In this document: one piece after another, positions 32,984 through 50,000 of the stretch | How positions within the stretch are numbered: position 1 is the first letter of the stretch | How the letters are laid out: every line of letters starts with the position of its first letter | DNA from: Acidobacteriaceae bacterium | GTDB taxonomy: Bacteria; Acidobacteriota; Terriglobia; Terriglobales; Acidobacteriaceae | Assembly: GCA_030041435.1 (NCBI GenBank) | Contig: JASHNW010000050.1 | Span: 62,001-126,000 of the forward strand | Direction of reading: 5' to 3' | Length of the DNA stretch: 64,000 nt | Made by a program: the position numbers and the translations under genes | Notes under the pieces: generated by a model | The model's input: only the letters and a program-made list of their open reading frames with translations | Told to the model about the DNA's origin: nothing | The model's database searches: none

Positions 32984-33318
32984 TGGTGCGGGCGGAGGGA
33001 CTTGAACCCTCACGGGGCTTGCGCCCCAACGGATTTTCTTACCAACGACGACTTTCGCCGCCCTGCCGGAATCGCGTCCCAGAGACGCTCCGGCAGGTTC
33101 GTGGTCTGGACTATACCTTCACCATGGCCGTTCGGCCAGCAGGTGCTGCCCGTCTAGTCTCTACACCTTCCCCGTCCAGAGTGCTCCGTCGGGGGCTTGG
33201 CTCGGGATCGCCATCTGACAGGGTTCCCCGAATTTGAGCAGTTCTGCATCGCCGGTTTCCCGGCGAGCACTCAAGTTGCGCTTAAGTCCGATGCGTCTGC
33301 CGATTCCGCCACGCCCGC
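32984..33318 (-). tRNA. tRNA-Leu(UAA), split by a group I intron
   Basis: Exon 1 is 33284-33318 (35 nt, ending at the first anticodon base U34). Exon 2 is 32984-33037 (54 nt, with encoded CCA). The acceptor stem GCGGGCG (33312-33318) pairs with CGCCCGC (32988-32994). Joined exons give an anticodon loop CUUAAAA in a CGGA/UCCG stem, a long variable arm, and TTCAAGTC in the T loop, the normal leucine isoacceptor layout at 89 nt. The interruption between U34 and A35 is the position used by the cyanobacterial and plastid tRNA-Leu intron. Confidence 0.95.
33038..33283 (-). ncRNA. Group I intron (IC3-like) in tRNA-Leu(UAA)
   Basis: 246 nt with no intron ORF. Core elements in order on the minus strand are: P near 33221-33235 (UUCGGGGAACCC), Q at 33194-33208 (AUCCCGAGCCAAGCC), R at 33149-33164 (GUAGAGACUAGACGGG) and S at 33108-33117 (GGUAUAGUCC). 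P1 is formed by exon ACUU with intron GAGU, leaving the expected U-G wobble at the 5' splice site. The last intron base is G (33038). P4 (UCGGG/CCCGA) and P7 (ACUA/UAGU) pair correctly. It should self-splice with guanosine. Confidence 0.93.
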
Positions 33319-33384: not shown

Positions 33385-33720
33385 TCATCTCGCGCATGAT
33401 ATTGATGGCGCGGCGTCGAGGCGGGTCGTGATTCTGTAGGCATAGAATTTTCTGATCCTCTCAGCCGATGTCCTGCAATTTTTCGCGATCTGGTACATGT
33501 CCGCCCCTCCCACCACGCGCAGGCAGACCCAGGTGTGCCGCAAGCTGTAAGCGGTACGTGATTGACCTTCGCGGTCGGTTTTCAGTTTCGTTTCATCGAG
33601 AATGGCGTTGAACAATTCCCGGTGCCACTTCGGGAAAAGGAGTTTCGTGGGTTCGGGCATGCGGGTCTTGCCGTTGCTCCCTACCTGCCCGTCGATCCGC
33701 GAAGGATGCAGGCGGATTAA
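33385..33720 (-). pseudogene. C-terminal remnant of a tyrosine recombinase/phage integrase
   Basis: The C-terminal part of the frame ending at 33385 reads YSLRHTWVCLRVVGGADMYQ, then IAKNCRTSAERIRKFYAY. This contains the box II Arg-His (SLRHT) and the nucleophile Tyr of the tyrosine recombinase fold, in the subfamily where NCRTS replaces the usual LGHSS. Only roughly 110 residues look homologous; the upstream part of the frame to about 33921 has no integrase character, and the N-terminal domains and first catalytic Arg are absent. It lies 66 bp from the tRNA-Leu gene and just downstream of the TIR-PFK gene. The 5' limit given is approximate. Confidence 0.75.
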
Positions 33721-33948
33721 GGTGATCGGGTCAGAATTACTCCACCTTTGCCGCGAGCGCCAGGTGAAGTTGGTTGAGGTGGACCTGCTATGGGGCTTTG
33801 CTGAAGGGCAGGACACCCGCAAGGAAACCCTCGCGCTCCGCCGTGATGAGATCGAGGCGTGCCGGCGTTTCTTTATCGGTCTGCTGGGCGAGCGCTGCTT
33901 CTGGGCACCAGCTCCGGTCACAGCGCATCGAGCGATACTTTCGCCTCA

Positions 33949-35976
33949 CTATGGCTCTGCAGATGCCTTAAGCGCAGGGACCGCTGCAGAGGCTGCAGAT
34001 GCCGGAGATCCCGTAGGCGCTGGAGGCGAGGAAGTCGGTTGCTCGGTTTTGGAGATAACCGATTTCCAAAAAATCCCCTCTTTTGGAACACGCTTTCTTC
34101 CAAGAACAACGAGAGGCAGCGGAACCAGCACGAATTCCGTGAGCCACTGGCTCACCATGAAGTCGGTATAGCCGGCCATGGCATTATCTACTGCCAGTGC
34201 CCCCAATCGCTCCCCAAAGATCACATCCGTGACGCTCGGTGGAATGGACCGGATCAAGTGCCTTGGCTCATTGGTGATGACACGAAAGTCTTTCCAATAC
34301 CACCGTGGCTGCAGACGCCGTTGAATCTCATGCTGGAGGACCCCCGAAACGATCTTCAGCCCCGCTCGCCTGAGATCGTCGGGCGTCTGCCCGCGGAGGC
34401 TGCGACCATTGCCCAGGAAGATCCTCAGTTGCTGCTGTTCGTCTTCCGAAAGGCCTGCACGCGGATCGCAGCAGAAGTCCTCGGCATCCTTCGGTAGTGC
34501 GGTTTCGGCCATGATAACGATAGCGTATGGGCTTGTCGTGCTCGGCCCGTTGCCGTAGCGGTCGATCAGTTTTTTCTTCACATGAGTCACGATTTCTTCC
34601 ATTGACAATGGATCTTCCGGAATGAGCACAAGGTCGCAAGCGGTGCTGTATCCCGCGTGGCTGGCGATAAAGCCCGAATCCGATCCGAATAACTGGATGA
34701 TTGCGACGCGCGGATTCGAAGAAACCTCTGTGTGCATGTGCAGGATGGCCTGGCGCGCCTCCTCTACCGCCGACAGAAAACCAAAAGATTGCCACACCCA
34801 AAGGATGTCATTGTCCATGGCCTTGGGAATACCGACGATCGATAGGTCGTAATCGGTACTCCGAGCATAGTGCCAGAGCGCGTGTGCACAACTCATGCTC
34901 CCCTCACCGCCGATGACGTACAGGATGTCGATTCCGTCCTGCTTTAACCGCTGAACCGCATCAAGCAGCATTTTCTCCCGATTCTCATTGCCTGGCAGCA
35001 GCATGTCGGCGCGTGAAGTCCCAAGGAACGCTCCACCCGCTTCAACCACATCGCGAACCGAGGTGCTGGTTAATGGCTGCGGCGCCACTCCATTGCGGAA
35101 GAGCGCTTTGAATCCCTCGCGATAACCCAGGATTTGCAATCCGTGTTGAAGTCCGGTCGCGATCTGGCGCTTGGAGTAGTGCGAATGACGGTCTAAAATC
35201 CCGTCGATGACGGCATTAATCCCGGGGGCGATGCCTCCGGATACCAGAATTGCCACCCTAAGCGTATCTCCCTCGCGTAGGGGGTAGCGGAGATGCGTCC
35301 GTGGGCGCGCCTCCGGGAAGGTCAGTTGTTGCCCATCTGCCTGGACACTCGTACGAGCGTCCAACAGCACTTCATGAGAGCCATCGGACAGGGCGCCGAT
35401 GCTGTTGTCAGTGATTGGATTGGGCAACGCAGCGTCCTTCTTTACTACGCGAGGCCACACTGTCCACCCAACTTCCGTCCGCAGGTCGAGCAGCAGTCCC
35501 GGGTCGCTACGACGAAGCTTTTCCAGAAACTCTTTTTCGTATTTGACAATATAGCGGCTGGGAAGACCATCCTCCGGAAACCACGGCACAAAAAGCCTCT
35601 CCATAATTTGTTTGGCCAAGTTTCTCGCGGAACTAAAAGCGGGCAGCCGAAGGTCGCGTTGCAGCACACCCTTATCAGCAGCTAAACGCAAACCCGCGGG
35701 AAGCTCCAGGACCAGTTGTACGGGGATGAATGGGCGTTCAGGGTGGTGGTTTAGATAGTAGTCAATTTCTTGTTTCTGTTTTCCAGCCGAATTCGCACCG
35801 AGGAACGCTATCATCCCTTCGCACTCGTCAAGCGGCTCAACAAGCAACTTATCCACATCGCCGTGACGACCGTGCCGCGGCCAGTAAAACAATTCAACTG
35901 CCTGCTTTGAAAGCATGTAATAGACCAGCTCAACGAACTCCTGGTCTGCAAACTTGTACGAGAGAAACAGTTTCAT
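33949..35976 (-). CDS. TIR-like domain fused to a divergent 6-phosphofructokinase domain
   Basis: 675 residues from the ATG at 35976; a GTG 15 bp upstream is possible. Residues 1-130 are TIR-like: MKLFLSYKFADQEFVE, then GMIAFLGANSAGKQKQEIDYYL, with E70 at the position of the TIR catalytic glutamate. Residues about 238-620 are a PfkA-type fold: SGGIAPGIN (246-254), GGEGS (356-360) and PKAMDND (384-390). Compared with E. coli PfkA the sites are altered: GGDGS is GGEGS, TIDND is AMDND, and MGRDSG is FGSDSG (430-435). The catalytic-base Asp is kept. TIR domains often cleave NAD in immunity, so this may be a defence protein whose PFK part senses a nucleotide or sugar phosphate. That role is inference. 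Confidence 0.85.
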   Translation of the reverse strand: MKLFLSYKFADQEFVELVYYMLSKQAVELFYWPRHGRHGDVDKLLVEPLDECEGMIAFLGANSAGKQKQEIDYYLNHHPERPFIPVQLVLELPAGLRLAADKGVLQRDLRLPAFSSARNLAKQIMERLFVPWFPEDGLPSRYIVKYEKEFLEKLRRSDPGLLLDLRTEVGWTVWPRVVKKDAALPNPITDNSIGALSDGSHEVLLDARTSVQADGQQLTFPEARPRTHLRYPLREGDTLRVAILVSGGIAPGINAVIDGILDRHSHYSKRQIATGLQHGLQILGYREGFKALFRNGVAPQPLTSTSVRDVVEAGGAFLGTSRADMLLPGNENREKMLLDAVQRLKQDGIDILYVIGGEGSMSCAHALWHYARSTDYDLSIVGIPKAMDNDILWVWQSFGFLSAVEEARQAILHMHTEVSSNPRVAIIQLFGSDSGFIASHAGYSTACDLVLIPEDPLSMEEIVTHVKKKLIDRYGNGPSTTSPYAIVIMAETALPKDAEDFCCDPRAGLSEDEQQQLRIFLGNGRSLRGQTPDDLRRAGLKIVSGVLQHEIQRRLQPRWYWKDFRVITNEPRHLIRSIPPSVTDVIFGERLGALAVDNAMAGYTDFMVSQWLTEFVLVPLPLVVLGRKRVPKEGIFWKSVISKTEQPTSSPPAPTGSPASAASAAVPALKASAEP

Positions 35977-36501
35977 GACAACGACCCCCACCTCTCATCT
36001 CTTGGAGCGTCGGTGCTCAAAGCGCAGCAGGCTCACCAATAGATCTGTTGGGTACCAATTCAGAGATCAAATACGCCGTCATGTAGTGGCGGGCAGAAAG
36101 CGAACTCTGCGGTCCTGGTAGACGCCCGAGTCTGGGATTGCATCCTTGGCGGGAATTGTACTCGCTCGACTGCAGGCGCGGTTGCCAAACATGCCCAAAG
36201 CGTGCCCGCATCGGTCATCTGGCAGAAGGTAAAGAGACATTCTGCCTCGCGGAAGCTGGCGACGATGACTACGAGTCGAGTCGGCGGTCTCTTCACAACC
36301 GGGGGTTCCTCGTTGCCACTATGGAACATCCCCGGTTTAGTTAGGCATCTGATTGATGCCTATACGGCTTTGAGTCCGCTGCGCATACCGATTGCGTTAT
36401 CCGAGCAACTGCTTGCGATCGAAGTTGAACTGCTTCGCTTCCCGCGCACAATAGAAAAGCGTGCCGGTGCGGCACGCTTTTCCGATGACCGGAAATACCG
36501 G
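35977..36501. other. 525-bp intergenic region
   Basis: No gene I can support. Short frames on both strands have no family character. The right end holds two hairpins, listed separately, that end the minus-strand zinc-ribbon gene. Confidence 0.45.
36455..36481 (-). terminator. Rho-independent terminator for the zinc-ribbon gene
   Basis: Perfect 11-bp stem AAAAGCGTGCC / GGCACGCTTTT with a 5-nt loop. Read on the minus strand it ends in TTTTCTATT. It lies about 20 bp past the stop of the gene at 36502-36765. A second hairpin GACCGG-AAATA-CCGGTC overlaps the stop at 36487-36503. Confidence 0.75.
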
Positions 36502-41531: not shown

Positions 41532-41729
41532 ATGAGCGGACGCCCCCACATTCCGGCCAGCGAAATCCGCGGCACCGCTGCTGCATTGACCGAATTCACG
41601 CGCCGTATACTCGCTGTGCCGCATAGCGCGATTCAGGCGGCACTGGAGGCCGAGAAACAGGAGAAGCGAACGCCCTCTAGACGTTCCGCTTCCCGCGCTT
41701 CTGCCTCTTCACCCAAACGGGCAATTTAG
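41532..41729 (+). CDS. Possible small basic protein next to the transposase
   Basis: 65 residues, convergent with and overlapping the transposase stop by 4 bp. Starts MSGRPHIPASEIRGTAAALTEF; the C-terminus is serine/arginine-rich and low complexity. Immediately upstream is a 7-bp inverted repeat (ATGCTCT-N7-AGAGCAT, 41513-41533) that runs into the start codon. It could be part of an element or a chance frame. Confidence 0.4.
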   Translation: MSGRPHIPASEIRGTAAALTEFTRRILAVPHSAIQAALEAEKQEKRTPSRRSASRASASSPKRAI

Positions 41730-42730
41730 AACGGCTCTCTCGTTTCTCCCACCTTACCAGTCAGTTCTGCAAACGTCAGTCTTTTCCCCGAAATCTGCGA
41801 CACTGCCAGCGCGAAGCGGTCCGCATCGTTGAGCGGGTTGTCCCGAGTGGCGCGATTGTTGAAACGAAAGACCTGCTCTGCAACGTATCCCTCCAGGTGG
41901 AAAGGTTCCACGGCAACGTATGTTCCGCGCAGCGTCCGCTTGAGCAGGCTCCAGAAGTTTTCCAGTCCGTTCGTGTGGACTTCGCCCCGGACATACTCCT
42001 GCACATGCGTTACGGTCTCGTGGATGTACTCCCGTGCGGCCAGGTCGTAGTACCCGCTGGCCTGATCCGTGTAGACTTTCGATCCACATTCCACCTGCTC
42101 CAGAATCTCGTTCTGAAGTGTTTCCCGCTTCACGTTCGGCACAACGCGCGCACGGACCTGACGGTTCTCCCGGTCCAGTAATCCCATTACCGGCACTTTG
42201 TCGGAATGCCGATGCGATGCCTTCCAGTCGGCTATTTCGCTCCGCTTCTTCTGGATGGCAAGGCGGCGGCTCTTGTGCATGTTCTTTGGGTTGCCGCCTA
42301 CAAATGTCTCGTCCGATTCCACGGCCCCGCCTTCAGGTCCGCCCATCTTTACTCTCGGTTCCATGTTCATAGCCAGCCGAATCCGGTGGAGCATGAACCA
42401 GGCCGACTTCTGGGTGACACCTAATGCCCGGCGGAGTTCGTAACTACTGATCCCGTTTTTGCAGTTCGCCAGCAGCCAAAAGGCTGGAAGCCACTTCTCA
42501 AGGCCAACGGCTGAATCCTCCATTACGGTTCCGGTTTTCAGGGTGAACTGTGGAGCTGGATGCTTGGCGCGACAGTGCCAGCGGTTGTACTTTTCCAGAA
42601 ACAACACATCCTGCGATCCGCAACGGGGGCACTCAACGCCGTTCGGCCAGCGATTCGCTACCATGTACTCGCGGCAGCGAACCGGATCGGAGAAGTACAG
42701 GATTGCATCTCTGAGAGTGTCGAGCTTCAT
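41726..42730 (-). mobile_element. IS1595-family transposase (ISXO2-like)
   Basis: 334 residues from the ATG at 42730 (MKLDTLRDAILYFSDPVRCREYM). An N-terminal zinc ribbon (CPRCG, then WHC around residues 35-55) is followed by an HTH-like region. The DDE-type catalytic domain has ESDETFVGGNP, KVYTDQASGYYDL and VHTNGLENFWSLLKRTLRGTY. These are the ISXO2/IS1595 landmarks. The gene appears intact. I could not identify terminal inverted repeats or a target-site duplication by eye, so the element ends are not given. Confidence 0.93.
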
Positions 42731-43120
42731 GAAAGGATGATGCCTGATTCCTGTAGTTTTGTCAAGTATATTATTGCCGTTACGAGGCGGCCTCTGCGGC
42801 CGGCCTCCGTTTCCGACCCGGTGCGGACGGCGCGACTCGGACGCAATCCTGTTCGCGACTTGGCGACGACCCAAGCTGCGAGTCGGGCGCGATGCGGTGA
42901 GGGCGAGACGTTTGCCGTTACCGCGGGACGGCGCGATCGGGAGCCGGGTCTTGTTGCCGCTGCAAAAAGAAAATGGACCGTTGGCAGACAGTCCATTCCT
43001 TGTCTTTAAGGGTAGGGGATAGAGGGATGGGAGGGCAAGGGAATTGTGGGGGTTGGGGGTTACGGAGGTAAGGGCTCACATTGGAACCGGCCAATTGGGT
43101 TCCCTGGGGCTGGTGAAACG
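42731..43120. other. 390-bp intergenic region between transposase and giant gene
   Basis: No supported gene. It holds a probable terminator for the minus-strand giant gene (listed) and a run of G-rich sequence at 43004-43075 (repeated GGGG and GGGTT) of no known role. Confidence 0.45.
42963..42997 (-). terminator. Probable rho-independent terminator of the giant gene
   Basis: Inverted repeat AATGGAC (42972-42978) / GTCCATT (42991-42997), 12-nt loop. On the minus strand it is followed by TTCTTTTTG. It is about 125 bp past the stop at 43121. Confidence 0.55.
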
Positions 43121-46100
43121 TCATTCTCGCATTCGGAGTTGTTCGGCTTCAAGGTCCTCTCTCGTAGCCAGGCTTTCCCAGCTTTCGGCGAGTGAGATTA
43201 AGAGTCCGCGCGTCCTTGGCCAGTTATCCATTCTTGCGGCGTCCCTTCTCAATTGTTGGGCCAGATCTCGTTCCTGCTTACCCCCCTCGAATGGTGCACG
43301 CGCTGTCGCTCCCCGCGAATTCATCTTGCCGATGTGTATTCCCTTTTCGATCTCGGTGCTCTGCCATTTTTCCAGTCCGTCCCGGACAGCGCGGTGAGGC
43401 CATAATTGATCCGTGGGGTCGTTCGGTGCGTGCGTCAGCAGCTTGCCGATATATTGTTCGGCGATTTTCAGCCGATCTTGGTTCTTGGCATCGTTTCGCG
43501 CGGTTTGGACCCAATCGTTAAGCGCTGCGGCGTCAATTCCCGCAGCGGAGAGTCCTGGGATTCGGCTGAAGCTCTCTAATAGTGTCATGCCTGTACTCAC
43601 CCGAGCCTGTTGTTCGGGGTTGAGGGGGGACTTGGGTTCGTTACGCTGGGAGGCTCGCCGGAAGACATCTGAAATGACTTGGATGAAGAATGTTGGTGAC
43701 TCGGCCATAAAGCGGTCGAGCGAGGAGTCAGGATCGGTGTTGCGCCAAAATCCGCGGAGAAGCGGCAGAAATCTGTATTCAAGTGCCGCGGTGGTTTCAA
43801 GGGGAACGCCGTCGCGGGATCGCAGGGCATTGAATAGCTGCTTGATGTGAAAATCCAAGGCCTGCCATCTGAGAATATGCGGACGTAGTGAGGCCTGATC
43901 TTCGAAGGACGTGAGTGTCGTGATCAGCCTATCCGTTGGAATCTCAGAGGCGCGGCCGGACAGCGCGAATATGATGTGCTCGGGTCTTTCGAATCGCAAA
44001 TATTGATCGACGGCGTAGACAAGTTCCGGACCTGTAGCCCGGATTCCCCAAGGTTCTCTATTTTGCCAGAATTGCCTTTCGGCTTCCTCGCCGAATTGAG
44101 CAACCCATTTCCATGTCTTTTCCTCAAGGGGCCAGAACTTTACGAGTTCCTGCATCAGGGCGCGAGACATTGTCCCCGCCCCGACGGACTCGCGAACGGC
44201 GGATGACCACGCCTCTCCGAAACGTTCGTACGCCGCGGCGGACGCTGAGGCGGCGAAGCCGACGGTGCTCGTGGCTCGATCCGCGCTCTTATAAATTCCG
44301 TCCAGTATTTCGTCGGGCGATGACGCGAGCATCCCGAATGCTGACCCTACGTGGCGCGGCGACTCGACTTCCGCGGCGAACCGGACCACGCCTTCGGTGC
44401 CAGCGGCGCTCATCAACTTTTTCACGGCCAACAGACGGTATTCTCCGATCTGTTCGCCAACGCGCCGGATTTCCATCTGGGGGATATGAGGGAGCTTCTC
44501 GGTGAATAGGTAGCGGTCCTCGGCACCAATCACCCGGGGGGCGATTATGGCCGCCGCGGCCTCAAGCACTTCTATTTCTCTTTCGGGTAGCACCCACTGC
44601 TCCGAAGGAAATGACCGATGTCTTCTGGTAATTTCGGAGAGTTTCTCCCAAAAAGTGACCGTTGCATTCTGCGCCATCGAGTCCATCGCGACGCTGAATG
44701 CTTGGATTATCGTCTCGCGGTCTCTGGGCGGAAGGTCATGAAGATCCTCGAGTAGAGCGGCCCACCTCTCTTCGTGGGCGTTCGCGAGACGCACCGCTCG
44801 ACTGGCGATTTCGCTGATCGTGTCGTCCACGATTTTGTAGGTTAAGATTTCGCGCTCTGACGCCCCGGCCTCTCGGAAGCGGGGCCTAATGGGTTCAAGT
44901 TGGAATGCATGGCGAGAGGGGAGCACCGCTAAGAGGAGTTTCCATGCGACAGCAGGCTGGGTAGCGATGACGTGGTCCAGAACGGCGACTCGAAGTTCGT
45001 GCGAGGCGTTTGAAGTAGGTTTCCACGTGGAGAGCAGCGAGACTATGCTGCCGATTGGTCGGTTCGCGAGTGTTCCGCCGGGATCGATCGCGTCGAGGCG
45101 CGCGAGTACGTTTACTGCAGGCTGGAGATATTTGGGGTCCTGGCCGATAAGTTCAAGCGCCCACAGGACGCCGGTGTGGGGGCTGCTGGACCAAAAGGTG
45201 TGGTCGTCTTTTCGATCCTGGAAGATGGCTTTTAGGCTTGGTGCATCGCCCTCAAGCATCTGCTCAAGGGCGTGCAATAAAGGGTCGGGGGCCGCCTCCA
45301 TCAGCATTGGCAACTGATGAGAGAGGCTTGCGATAACGCGATAATCTTCGCGCAGGCCCGGGATTGTACCCACAAGGTGATTGACGAACTCTTGCGGGGG
45401 GCGACCGTTAACGGAAACTTCGTTCCCCGCTCCTAGTGCCCCGAGGATCAGCAGGGTTGTGGTGAGGCCGTCCCGGAGCCAGCTGCTGTGGGAAAGTACT
45501 TTGCCTCGGAGTGACGCGTACATCCGCTCGGAGGGTGGCAGCTCAAGGGCTGGATCTACTTCGGCGAGCACTCTGTGGGCGGCTTGGGTGAGCCCCTGCC
45601 AGTGGCGGGCCTGGAGCAGGTTGCTGATTTGGACAAAAAGGTCAACCGGGGCCCGGACCGACCAGACAGTGCCAATTAGCTCGATGGGAGAGTCTGGGTG
45701 GGTGAGAAACGACCTGAGTGACTGCTCGACTTCTTCGTAGCTGTTTGCACCAGCCAGAGCAGCGACAACTTCGGTGTCTGCTTTGACGGATTGGTCCCAT
45801 GCGCCCGCAAGAAAGGCAGCCACGAGTCGGTTGTCATTGCTCCATGAGGGGCGTGGCGCGCTTGTGCTGGGAATTCTGCGAGCAAGGATGCTCACGCTTC
45901 TTCCGCATTCGTGCGCAAGTTGCCATGCCCTTTCCGGCGAAAAGCCCATGAACTCGAGTCCTTCGCGCATTTCGTATGCAGTAGGGCGATTCAGTTCGAT
46001 CCAAGATGAGCCCCTTGCAGCATCCCTGCCGATCGGAGCAATCACTCGGTGGCCCCTGTCTGCGAGCATCCCGCCGGCATCCATCGCGGCCCCGCGAACC

Positions 46101-46912
46101 GCGAAGATAAGGTTCGACTTATCTCGGAGTTGCCGTGCAGCCTCCTCTGACTGAATGATTAGAGTTCGCGCACGAAGGTATTCTCGCGTTTCGTCGTCGG
46201 CTGATCGGACGGTTGCGCACAGGAAAGCCAGCACCTCATCGAGTGAGTCTCCCCTGCACCGTTGCACTCCGACGCCGGACATCAGAGCCCGCTGCAATTC
46301 CTCGACTTGGCCGGACCGTCCGGCGAGCAGGACTTTCTCCGAGAGCGGGGGAGTAAATCTTCCTGAGTAGAGGTCCCAGAACTCGTCGATGGACTGGACG
46401 TCATCCCGGGGCGCGAAATTGTTCTCACGCGCAAACGTGGCGGCGACCCCTGGGCAGAGGCCCATCCACTCTTCAAGGTCGACCGCATCGATGACGCGAA
46501 TTTCTCTCCACGGGGATTTCGCCTTTCGGCGGTCAATCCATTTTTCTGCCCCAGCCCAGGTGCGCGGCGTTACGAACACAAAGGTTGTTTCCGCCTGGGT
46601 GATCCCTTCGCCCGGCTTCTTCCGTCGTTTCGCATAATCCTTCCCGGCTTTCGTCGCGGGATTCTTATCGGCGCCGAACTCCCAGACTGAGGCTCCTTCA
46701 GGCACATACGCCTTAAGCGGATGGCTCGCGTTGGCGATGAGGCGACCGTCCCAGCCTGGTATTTGGGAGCTGTCTGCGCCGGGGAACCGGAATGAGCCAA
46801 TATCACTTGCAGACGCCCGAACGAGCTGGCCTATCAGGCGTGGTAGAACCGCGCGAGCATCCAGTCGCTCGCCTGCCCACGTTTCCAGCTGTGTAGCCCC
46901 GACCCATCGCAT
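43121..46912 (-). CDS. Giant (1263-residue) protein: nuclease-like N-terminus and degenerate STAND-like domain
   Basis: The ATG at 46912 begins MRWVGATQLETWAGERLDAR; the open frame extends 837 bp upstream but across unrelated sequence, including a TonB-receptor remnant. Residues 50-120 (PGWDGRLIA, VPEGASVWEFG, KAGKDYAKR, FVFVTPRTW) have a spaced Asp55, Glu78 and Lys88 reminiscent of PD-(D/E)xK nucleases. Residues 190-345 look like a P-loop ATPase shell with a degenerate Walker A (LLAGRSGQVEEL, no GK[ST]), then RTLIIQSEEAAR, GHRVIAPIGRD and SPERAWQLAHECGRS. The remaining roughly 900 residues are helical repeats. Such large proteins recur in bacterial accessory regions, and an antiviral sensor-effector is plausible but unproved. 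The N-terminal nuclease call is tentative. Confidence 0.7.
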   Translation of the reverse strand: MRWVGATQLETWAGERLDARAVLPRLIGQLVRASASDIGSFRFPGADSSQIPGWDGRLIANASHPLKAYVPEGASVWEFGADKNPATKAGKDYAKRRKKPGEGITQAETTFVFVTPRTWAGAEKWIDRRKAKSPWREIRVIDAVDLEEWMGLCPGVAATFARENNFAPRDDVQSIDEFWDLYSGRFTPPLSEKVLLAGRSGQVEELQRALMSGVGVQRCRGDSLDEVLAFLCATVRSADDETREYLRARTLIIQSEEAARQLRDKSNLIFAVRGAAMDAGGMLADRGHRVIAPIGRDAARGSSWIELNRPTAYEMREGLEFMGFSPERAWQLAHECGRSVSILARRIPSTSAPRPSWSNDNRLVAAFLAGAWDQSVKADTEVVAALAGANSYEEVEQSLRSFLTHPDSPIELIGTVWSVRAPVDLFVQISNLLQARHWQGLTQAAHRVLAEVDPALELPPSERMYASLRGKVLSHSSWLRDGLTTTLLILGALGAGNEVSVNGRPPQEFVNHLVGTIPGLREDYRVIASLSHQLPMLMEAAPDPLLHALEQMLEGDAPSLKAIFQDRKDDHTFWSSSPHTGVLWALELIGQDPKYLQPAVNVLARLDAIDPGGTLANRPIGSIVSLLSTWKPTSNASHELRVAVLDHVIATQPAVAWKLLLAVLPSRHAFQLEPIRPRFREAGASEREILTYKIVDDTISEIASRAVRLANAHEERWAALLEDLHDLPPRDRETIIQAFSVAMDSMAQNATVTFWEKLSEITRRHRSFPSEQWVLPEREIEVLEAAAAIIAPRVIGAEDRYLFTEKLPHIPQMEIRRVGEQIGEYRLLAVKKLMSAAGTEGVVRFAAEVESPRHVGSAFGMLASSPDEILDGIYKSADRATSTVGFAASASAAAYERFGEAWSSAVRESVGAGTMSRALMQELVKFWPLEEKTWKWVAQFGEEAERQFWQNREPWGIRATGPELVYAVDQYLRFERPEHIIFALSGRASEIPTDRLITTLTSFEDQASLRPHILRWQALDFHIKQLFNALRSRDGVPLETTAALEYRFLPLLRGFWRNTDPDSSLDRFMAESPTFFIQVISDVFRRASQRNEPKSPLNPEQQARVSTGMTLLESFSRIPGLSAAGIDAAALNDWVQTARNDAKNQDRLKIAEQYIGKLLTHAPNDPTDQLWPHRAVRDGLEKWQSTEIEKGIHIGKMNSRGATARAPFEGGKQERDLAQQLRRDAARMDNWPRTRGLLISLAESWESLATREDLEAEQLRMRE

Positions 46913-50000
<3,088 letters not shown>

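What the first reader, a model, noticed from the sequence alone, without database searches (positions are those of the whole stretch)
33949..35976. TIR-like domain fused to a phosphofructokinase fold
An N-terminal TIR-like domain with the catalytic-position Glu is joined to a PfkA-type domain. TIR domains often cleave NAD or make signalling nucleotides in bacterial immunity. Coupling one to a sugar-phosphate/nucleotide-binding enzyme suggests a defence protein that reads metabolic state, or a PFK that supplies a ligand. I know no characterised representative.
Basis: partly seen in the sequence, partly recalled or inferred. Interest (0 to 1): 0.85.

Follow-up and report, generated by a model that had tools for sequence, protein, structure and literature searches.

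The report
Immune TIR domain fused to phosphofructokinase
A bacterial gene joins a TIR domain, a kind of enzyme that many cells use to destroy NAD during infection, to a sugar-phosphate kinase domain; the same rare fusion recurs in very distant microbes and often sits near immune-type genes, so it may be a defence protein that is switched by the cell's metabolic state.

Summary
The window encodes a 675-aa protein with an N-terminal TIR domain (predicted structure matches solved TIR domains, best Z 14.3; Glu70 in helix alphaC) and a phosphofructokinase (PFK) superfamily domain (Pfam E 4.5e-51) closest to trypanosomatid PFK. It is not a one-off: I found 20 loci of this family in 18 genomes of very distant phyla, 16 of them intact. 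Glu70 is kept in 16 of 16 intact copies. The PFK part is better conserved (52% and 66% mean pairwise identity in two stretches) than the TIR (23%). Its catalytic Asp and sugar-phosphate site are kept, but the 'MGR' arginine is serine in 19 of 19. The family is rare (3 of 1,480 non-seed genomes in eight phylum searches) and its tree mixes host phyla. Conflict-type genes lie near 8 of 20 loci versus 2 of 40 arbitrary stretches; a RelA/SpoT-SLOG-RyR protein is in 6 of 17 TIR-PFK genomes versus 1 of 63 controls. In the window the gene abuts remnants of an integrase and a DUF4062 gene. Best reading: a TIR effector gated by a PFK-type ligand-sensing, oligomerising module. NAD cleavage, the ligand and phage defence are untested; some loci point to sugar metabolism instead.

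The parts
33949..35976 (-). TIR-PFK gene, 675 aa from the ATG (680 aa from an upstream GTG at 35991)
35587..35976 (-). TIR domain, residues 1-130
   Evidence: TIR_2 E 1.8e-5, below cut-off; model matches solved TIR domains, best Z 14.3; profile match to a neighbouring TIR family E 1.6e-4, probability 50%
35767..35769 (-). codon of Glu70, putative catalytic Glu of the TIR domain
   Evidence: E in 16 of 16 complete TIR domains; codon read
35272..35586 (-). conserved linker, residues 131-235, with invariant Y146-E147-K148 and W174-P175; its later part aligns with the N-terminal arm of T. brucei PFK
34027..35271 (-). PFK-superfamily domain with a family-specific C-terminal segment, residues 236-650
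   Evidence: PF00365 E 4.5e-51; 2hig E 4.3e-55 with the family profile; fold match 3f5m
34681..34683 (-). codon of Ser432, at the position of the Arg of the PFK 'MGR' motif
   Evidence: S in 19 of 19 members, R in the TIR-less relative L051; MGR in T. brucei PFK and human PFK N-halves; codon read
33716..33910 (+). remnant of a DUF4062 gene (TIR-like NADase family), convergent with TIR-PFK, about 40 bp from its stop
   Evidence: tblastn 4e-7 and 6e-6 to two DUF4062 proteins; 2e-5 to an annotated DUF4062 protein; no Pfam match for the ORFs there
33391..33672 (-). C-terminal remnant of a site-specific integrase
   Evidence: 58% identity, E 6e-27, to a protein annotated as site-specific integrase; no Pfam match and no useful PHROG match

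Best explanation
The protein is a single-chain conflict (probably anti-phage or anti-element) effector. The TIR domain is the effector, predicted to cleave NAD(P)+ through Glu70. The PFK domain is its switch: it keeps the PFK pockets for nucleotide and sugar phosphate, but the altered active site (R to S in the whole family; also D103 to E and T125 to A in this protein) makes fast glycolytic turnover unlikely. PFKs are allosteric tetramers, so I propose that binding or loss of a metabolite or nucleotide signal changes the tetramer and brings TIR domains into an active arrangement. In some genomes the signal may come from the co-occurring RelA/SpoT-SLOG-RyR protein. Shown: folds, conserved residues, recurrence, patchy distribution, neighbour enrichment. 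Inferred: NAD cleavage, tetramer, ligand, gating, defence.
For: TIR fold and Glu70. PFK pocket residues kept: R322, G356, G359, K385, D388, D390, R423, E491 in all 19 members and R576 in 18 of the 18 that cover it. MGR Arg to Ser in 19 of 19. PFK conserved more than TIR (52% and 66% versus 23% mean pairwise identity, 12 rows), which fits a sensor of a conserved internal ligand rather than of a variable phage protein. Rare, with host phyla mixed in the tree. Conflict-type neighbours in 8 of 20 loci versus 2 of 40, Fisher 0.0014, 0.0034 without the window. RelA/SpoT-SLOG-RyR protein in 6 of 17 versus 1 of 63 genomes; 3 of 14 versus 1 of 63, p 0.018, when the three query genomes are left out. Window gene beside DUF4062 and integrase remnants. 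DUF4062 is reported as a TIR-like NADase family with anti-phage members (PMC13174449, abstract and passages). Two further PFK-like loci in the same genome.
Against: No activity or phage data exist. 12 of 20 loci show no conflict-type neighbour in the DNA held. A GalU-like or glycogen-synthase-like gene is adjacent in three loci, which fits metabolism. The catalytic Asp pair is kept, so the PFK may still be an enzyme. No PADLOC match for TIR-PFK. The neighbour families were chosen from the test loci, and the control genomes are smaller (median 3.7 Mb versus 5.8 Mb). The full-length model is poor at residues 386-455 and beyond 569 (mean pLDDT 60.1); no tetramer was modelled.
Confidence: 0.5

Rival explanations
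1. Metabolic enzyme. The PFK domain is an active sugar-phosphate kinase with a shifted substrate, and the TIR domain is a regulator, scaffold or NAD-linked brake; the protein works in glucose-phosphate, glycogen or UDP-glucose metabolism.
For: A nucleotidyltransferase gene (PF00483; GalU by my reading) is adjacent to both TIR-PFK genes of one MAG (L022, L023); a starch/glycogen-synthase-like gene ends about 80 bp upstream in L015; GalU relatives lie 3-4 kb away in L049 and L050; catalytic Asp residues kept.
Against: The GalU adjacency rests on one MAG; no such gene was recognised beside most other loci, though not every ORF was scanned; the distribution is patchy; the MGR Arg is lost in 19 of 19 and the window protein has two further active-site changes; the genome has two other PFK-like loci.
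Confidence: 0.2
2. Two linked enzymes. The PFK domain phosphorylates a nucleotide or sugar phosphate made or used by the TIR domain or by the RelA/SpoT or Nudix partner, so that the fusion makes a signalling molecule and NAD depletion is not the point.
For: PFK catalytic Asp and donor-site Gly are kept while the MGR Arg is changed in the whole family, as expected if the acceptor changed; partners that would make or break nucleotides recur. NAD kinase shares the PFK superfamily fold (recalled).
Against: No substrate evidence; the window protein has GGEG and PKAMDND in place of GGDG and PKTMDND, which points to weaker catalysis here.
Confidence: 0.15
3. Relic. In this genome the gene is a non-functional leftover of a decayed island, although the family is functional elsewhere.
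For: It abuts truncated integrase and DUF4062 remnants; active-site substitutions; two other loci are broken (L017 frameshifts, L018 deletion).
Against: The ORF is open over its whole length and aligns end to end with its relatives; against L007 the PFK part has dN 0.21 with saturated dS (NG86 ratio about 0.07).
Confidence: 0.12

Closest known systems
TIR NADases with a sensor or oligomerising partner domain (SARM1, TIR-STING, TIR-APAZ/SPARTA, plant TIR-NLRs)
   Same: TIR fold with an alphaC Glu; effector domain joined to a larger module
   Different: the module is a phosphofructokinase; NAD cleavage and assembly are untested
Trypanosoma brucei ATP-dependent PFK (2hig, 3f5m) and NCBIfam PRK06830
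   Same: closest by sequence (2hig E 4.3e-55; PRK06830 E 1.9e-69) and by fold, including the N-terminal arm
   Different: MGRDSG is FGSDSG here; below the PRK06830 cut-off (234 of 400 bits); TIR domain in front; strongly conserved C-terminal segment with SQWLTE and GRKR motifs
DUF4062 proteins / Swarozyc (PMC13174449, abstract and passages)
   Same: TIR-like domain with Glu; DUF4062 genes are neighbours in L020, L022, L048 and a remnant in the window
   Different: TIR-PFK matches TIR_2, not DUF4062, and carries PFK instead of NACHT or the Swarozyc auxiliary domain
RapZ (PMC9841335, passages)
   Same: a PFK-like domain used for regulation, in a tetramer
   Different: RapZ binds RNA; no TIR domain (recalled)

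Membership tests
TIR domain superfamily | TIR fold | tested here: met
   best Z 14.3 to RUN1 TIR; ranks 1-12 are TIR domains or TIR-containing NLRs; Foldseek rank 1 RPS4/RRS1 TIR E 7e-6
TIR domain superfamily | sequence profile (Pfam TIR_2 at its curated cut-off) | tested here: inconclusive
   window protein E 1.8e-5 but 25.7 of 28 bits; 8 of 12 members, window included, match at E<=0.01
TIR domain superfamily | catalytic Glu in helix alphaC | tested here: met
   Glu70 in helix 66-77; E in 16 of 16 complete TIR domains
TIR NADase | NAD(P)+ cleavage | not testable with these tools
   needs protein
Phosphofructokinase superfamily (PFKA type) | PF00365 profile and fold | tested here: met
   E 4.5e-51, 174 bits against a cut-off of 30.9; 3f5m E 6.4e-15
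Phosphofructokinase superfamily (PFKA type) | general base Asp127 and phosphate-binding Arg162 | tested here: met
   D388 and R423 in all 20 rows aligned, 19 members and L051
Functional 6-phosphofructokinase | full MGR motif | tested here: not met
   FGS in 19 of 19 members; FGR in the TIR-less relative L051
Functional 6-phosphofructokinase | ATP + F6P kinase activity | not testable with these tools
   needs protein
Known anti-phage systems in PADLOC-DB 2.0.0 | profile match | tested here: not met
   no match for TIR-PFK of the window (E<=1) or of L022 (E<=0.001)
Thoeris (TIR ThsB with ThsA) | adjacent ThsA-type effector | tested here: inconclusive
   none among the neighbours scanned, but not every ORF was scanned
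Swarozyc / DUF4062 | DUF4062 domain in the protein | tested here: not met
   Pfam lists only PFK and TIR_2 for the window protein at E<=1

The most novel reading that the evidence does not exclude
TIR-PFK is the effector of an undescribed metabolite- or alarmone-gated immune network: the RelA/SpoT-TPR-SLOG-RyR enzyme and its Nudix partner make and remove a nucleotide signal, and the PFK domain, a glycolytic enzyme turned receptor, reads that signal (or the ATP and sugar-phosphate state) and switches on the TIR NADase.
Probability: 0.15. Interest if true: 0.93.

Novelty: new variant of a known kind. Interest (0 to 1): 0.75.

Why it matters
If right, the textbook allosteric enzyme of glycolysis has been captured as the sensor half of an immune effector, a direct link between central carbon metabolism and NAD-based cell suicide. 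It would make testable the question of whether bacterial immunity can be triggered by metabolic state instead of by a phage protein or nucleic acid. The 20 loci give a defined family, with a Glu to mutate and a ligand pocket to screen.

Tried and rejected
Assembly or gene-prediction chimera: rejected; 16 intact copies on independent contigs or places.

Chance TIR match: rejected by structure; the profile-profile match to the neighbouring TIR family is only supportive (E 1.6e-4, probability 50%). A plain sequence search of residues 1-118 against PDB found no TIR (best E 0.29, unrelated).

Phage or plasmid carriage: tblastn with the whole protein found no record with 80% of the query covered, in plasmids (77 records, 40 listed, matches start at residue 186 or later) or phages (35 records, 20 listed, start at 221 or later). 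Two viral-contig scans found no TIR-PFK (the two loci match residues 240-630 only, 26% identity).

att-site repeats around the window island: none convincing. Promoter and terminator scans at chance level. Low G+C as a sign of transfer: weak, see the report.

YN00 failed and dS is saturated.

Limits of the neighbour test: the query families were picked from the TIR-PFK loci; queries from the same genome were left out of each count, but the choice still favours the test set. The 40 control stretches are arbitrary, mostly contig starts, and shorter on average (571 kb in 40, test 343 kb in 20). Nudix, GalU and GT5 hits were not counted as conflict-type. Limits of the co-occurrence test: 63 controls taken by handle number, not matched for genome size or completeness.

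Full report
OBSERVATION. The ORF at 33949-35991 (-) is open over 680 codons from a GTG and 675 from the ATG at 35976. Pfam finds PFK (E 4.5e-51) and TIR_2 (E 1.8e-5, 25.7 bits, cut-off 28). NCBIfam's best model is PRK06830 ATP-dependent PFK, 234 bits against a cut-off of 400, so it is a relative and not a member of that model. PADLOC has no match.

TIR DOMAIN. AlphaFold2 on residues 1-187 with 11 family sequences gives pLDDT 72.9, about 75-91 in most ten-residue blocks of residues 1-90 and 111-130. Glu70 sits in helix 66-77, after strand 54-59. Foldseek ranks TIR domains first (RPS4/RRS1 E 7e-6). The second aligner gives RUN1 Z 14.3, AbTir 13.7, SPARTA 12.7 and SARM1 12.5. DNPH1, of a related fold (recalled), follows at Z 11.8. 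Glu70 is E in 16 of 16 members with a complete TIR; two partial rows and one frameshifted row have a gap there, and the TIR-less L051 shows a spurious E.

PFK DOMAIN. The family profile hits T. brucei PFK 2hig at E 4.3e-55, including its N-terminal arm, so the last part of the linker belongs to the PFK. The full-length model (mean pLDDT 60.1, poor at residues 386-455 and beyond 569) also matches T. brucei PFK best. Residues corresponding to E. coli R72, D127, D129, R162 and E222 are kept in all 19 members, and R252 in the 18 that cover it; the equivalences are my mapping from the alignments. D127 is the general base and R162 binds the F6P phosphate (PMC12203962, section 3 part 1 of 5 read). 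The donor signature GGDG/GGEG has the glycine that the same review gives for ATP rather than PPi (passage). The MGR motif is FGS in 19 of 19 members, against FGR in the TIR-less relative L051 and MGR in T. brucei PFK and in the N-halves of human PFKL and PFKP; the C-halves of those human enzymes have MGG. GGDG is GGEG in 5 of 19, including the window; the T of PKTMDND is A in 3 of 19 (window, L007, L008). That this Arg and Thr contact the transferred phosphate is recalled, not looked up.

FAMILY. One genome-contig scan with the window protein gave 15 loci; 14 belong to the family and one (L021) is a plain PFK. Genome searches added a second copy in two genomes, one member in the phylum of G402 and two in Bacteroidota. 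In all, 20 loci in 18 genomes: 16 intact (window, L007, L009, L010, L012-L016, L019, L020, L022, L047-L050), two whose TIR is not in the DNA held (L008 at a contig end, L011 0.3 kb from a contig start), one frameshifted (L017), one with a deletion (L018). By record titles and phylum searches the intact copies are in Acidobacteriota, Planctomycetota, Verrucomicrobiota, Bacteroidota, Cloacimonadota, a proteobacterial MAG, the phylum of G402 and a Hodarchaeota MAG; the Spirochaetales and Deltaproteobacteria copies are broken or partial. The named records are nearly all MAGs. G274 and G404 are taken as one MAG, since contig numbers and lengths agree. Mean pairwise identity over 12 rows is 23% in the TIR, 33% in the linker, 52% in residues 236-455 and 66% in residues 525-648. 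The tree of 17 rows, L051 included, puts Acidobacteriota in three places and the phylum of G402 in three, which suggests transfer between hosts; only 6 of 14 inner branches are well supported.

RARITY. At E<=1e-90 with the family profile, seed genomes included: 1 of 247, 1 of 124, 2 of 246, 2 of 82, 1 of 213, 4 of 218 (one of the four, L046/L051, has no TIR), 1 of 119 and 1 of 240. Leaving out seeds and L051, that is 3 of 1,480. In Acidobacteriota, a less sensitive search with one TIR-plus-linker sequence found 2 of 396: the window genome and G274.

NEIGHBOURS. Three loci have, within 8 kb, a protein with RelA/SpoT and RyR domains (L022, L047, L048). Pfam sees SLOG (LSDAT_prok) only in L048 and TPR in L047 and L048; the three align over their whole length, with the synthetase-region residues conserved. 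A Nudix gene lies near it in L022 and L048, L066, and by my reading L067 and L068. Searched as a profile at E<=1e-40, this protein is in 6 of 17 TIR-PFK genomes (G400, G402, G404, G407, G408, G1067) and 1 of 63 controls (G1185), Fisher 0.00025; without the three query genomes 3 of 14 versus 1 of 63, p 0.018. The controls are smaller genomes (median 3.7 versus 5.8 Mb), which may inflate the contrast. It lies on the TIR-PFK contig in 5 of the 6, about 0.6 to 48 kb away. The window genome has none. Other recurring genes: an AAA-RyR protein with a sigma-54 activator, adjacent in L007 and about 15 kb away on the G402 contig, its sigma-54 part related to RtcR types; a TIR protein of about 360 aa (L012, L019, L047); DUF4062-NACHT proteins (L020, L022, L048); and a ThiF/JAB-like operon in L047 and L071 (my reading of translations; not scanned). 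In a count with queries from other genomes only, 8 of 20 loci have such a neighbour against 2 of 40 arbitrary stretches of the same genomes, Fisher 0.0014, or 0.0034 without the window. Twelve loci have none; among these L017 has a NACHT-Nudix protein upstream that the test could not count because it was itself a query. Results against this reading: a GalU-like gene (PF00483) is adjacent to both copies of one MAG, a glycogen-synthase-like gene to L015, and L049/L050 sit among what read as ordinary genes.

WINDOW CONTEXT. The flank holds the C-terminal part of an integrase (58% identical to an annotated site-specific integrase) and, between it and the TIR-PFK stop, a DUF4062 remnant, found by the neighbour test and confirmed against plasmids. 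Together they look like a decayed accessory island next to a tRNA gene with a group I intron. G+C is 0.54-0.59 over the gene against 0.61-0.68 in the nearest flanks, but the stretch from 38.5 to 44 kb is also low (0.55-0.58), so this is weak evidence. A preprint reports DUF4062 as TIR-like NADases with an anti-phage system, Swarozyc (PMC13174449, abstract and passages).

MECHANISM. Committed reading: TIR effector, PFK switch. Shown here are the folds, the conserved residues, the recurrence and the context. Inferred are NAD cleavage, the tetramer, the ligand, gating and defence. Bacterial PFKs are tetramers with effector sites at subunit interfaces (PMC12203962). Assembly as the trigger of TIR signalling is taken from abstracts in a search listing (PMC9402430, PMC8494770). 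A PFK-like domain used for regulation in a tetramer has a precedent in RapZ (PMC9841335, passages).

LITERATURE. Searches for TIR with phosphofructokinase, for TIR-PFK as a name, and for the RelA/SLOG/RyR context found no description (long lists were seen only in part). The word phosphofructokinase does not occur in PMC7159879, PMC8195603, PMC7824862 ('pfk' once, passage not shown), PMC7016017, PMC9503650 or PMC13174449, and 'TIR' does not occur in the PFK review PMC12203962. The library lacks most subscription papers; a 2015 survey of nucleotide-centred conflict systems (recalled) was not held under the DOI I tried, so an earlier mention cannot be excluded.

SCORE. A real, recurrent, apparently undescribed architecture with a plausible but untested mechanism: interest 0.75, new variant of a known kind (TIR effector with a new sensor).

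Noticed in passing
window 32984-33318 (-): A tRNA gene interrupted by a group I intron: Rfam Intron_gpI 33098-33293, 46.5 bits, E 8.5e-11, just under the gathering score of 50; ARAGORN finds the tRNA when introns are allowed, with an intron of 244 bases, and calls it tRNA-Phe(aaa), while the default run found none. By my reading it is tRNA-Leu(UAA).
   Followed up: partly
L022 2579-5458; L047 15069-17738; L048 6076-8694; L065 10961-13576; L066 8898-11501: A RelA/SpoT ... RyR protein with a SLOG region in some, conserved synthetase-region residues, often with a Nudix gene and in L065 an HD gene beside it: looks like an alarmone-type signalling system of its own.
   Followed up: partly
L007 5467-9840; L071 3210-7683; L067 3978-6767: AAA-RyR protein (about 870-930 aa), next to a sigma-54 activator in L007 and L071.
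   Followed up: no
L051 8575-9987: TIR-less PFK, 470 aa, nearest outgroup found, keeps FGR, beside genes whose translations look like corrinoid and methyltransferase proteins.
   Followed up: partly
L018 132-1309 and 6494-6844: A TIR-PFK with the middle of its PFK domain missing and, 5 kb on, the start of a second TIR-PFK-like N-terminus.
   Followed up: no
window 41726-42874 (-): IS1595-type transposase (PF12762 E 4.8e-40), 5.7 kb from the TIR-PFK gene.
   Followed up: no
window 43121-47749 (-): 1542-aa protein that matches PHROG 18693 of unknown function at E 1.6e-239 but only an outer-membrane barrel weakly in Pfam.
   Followed up: no
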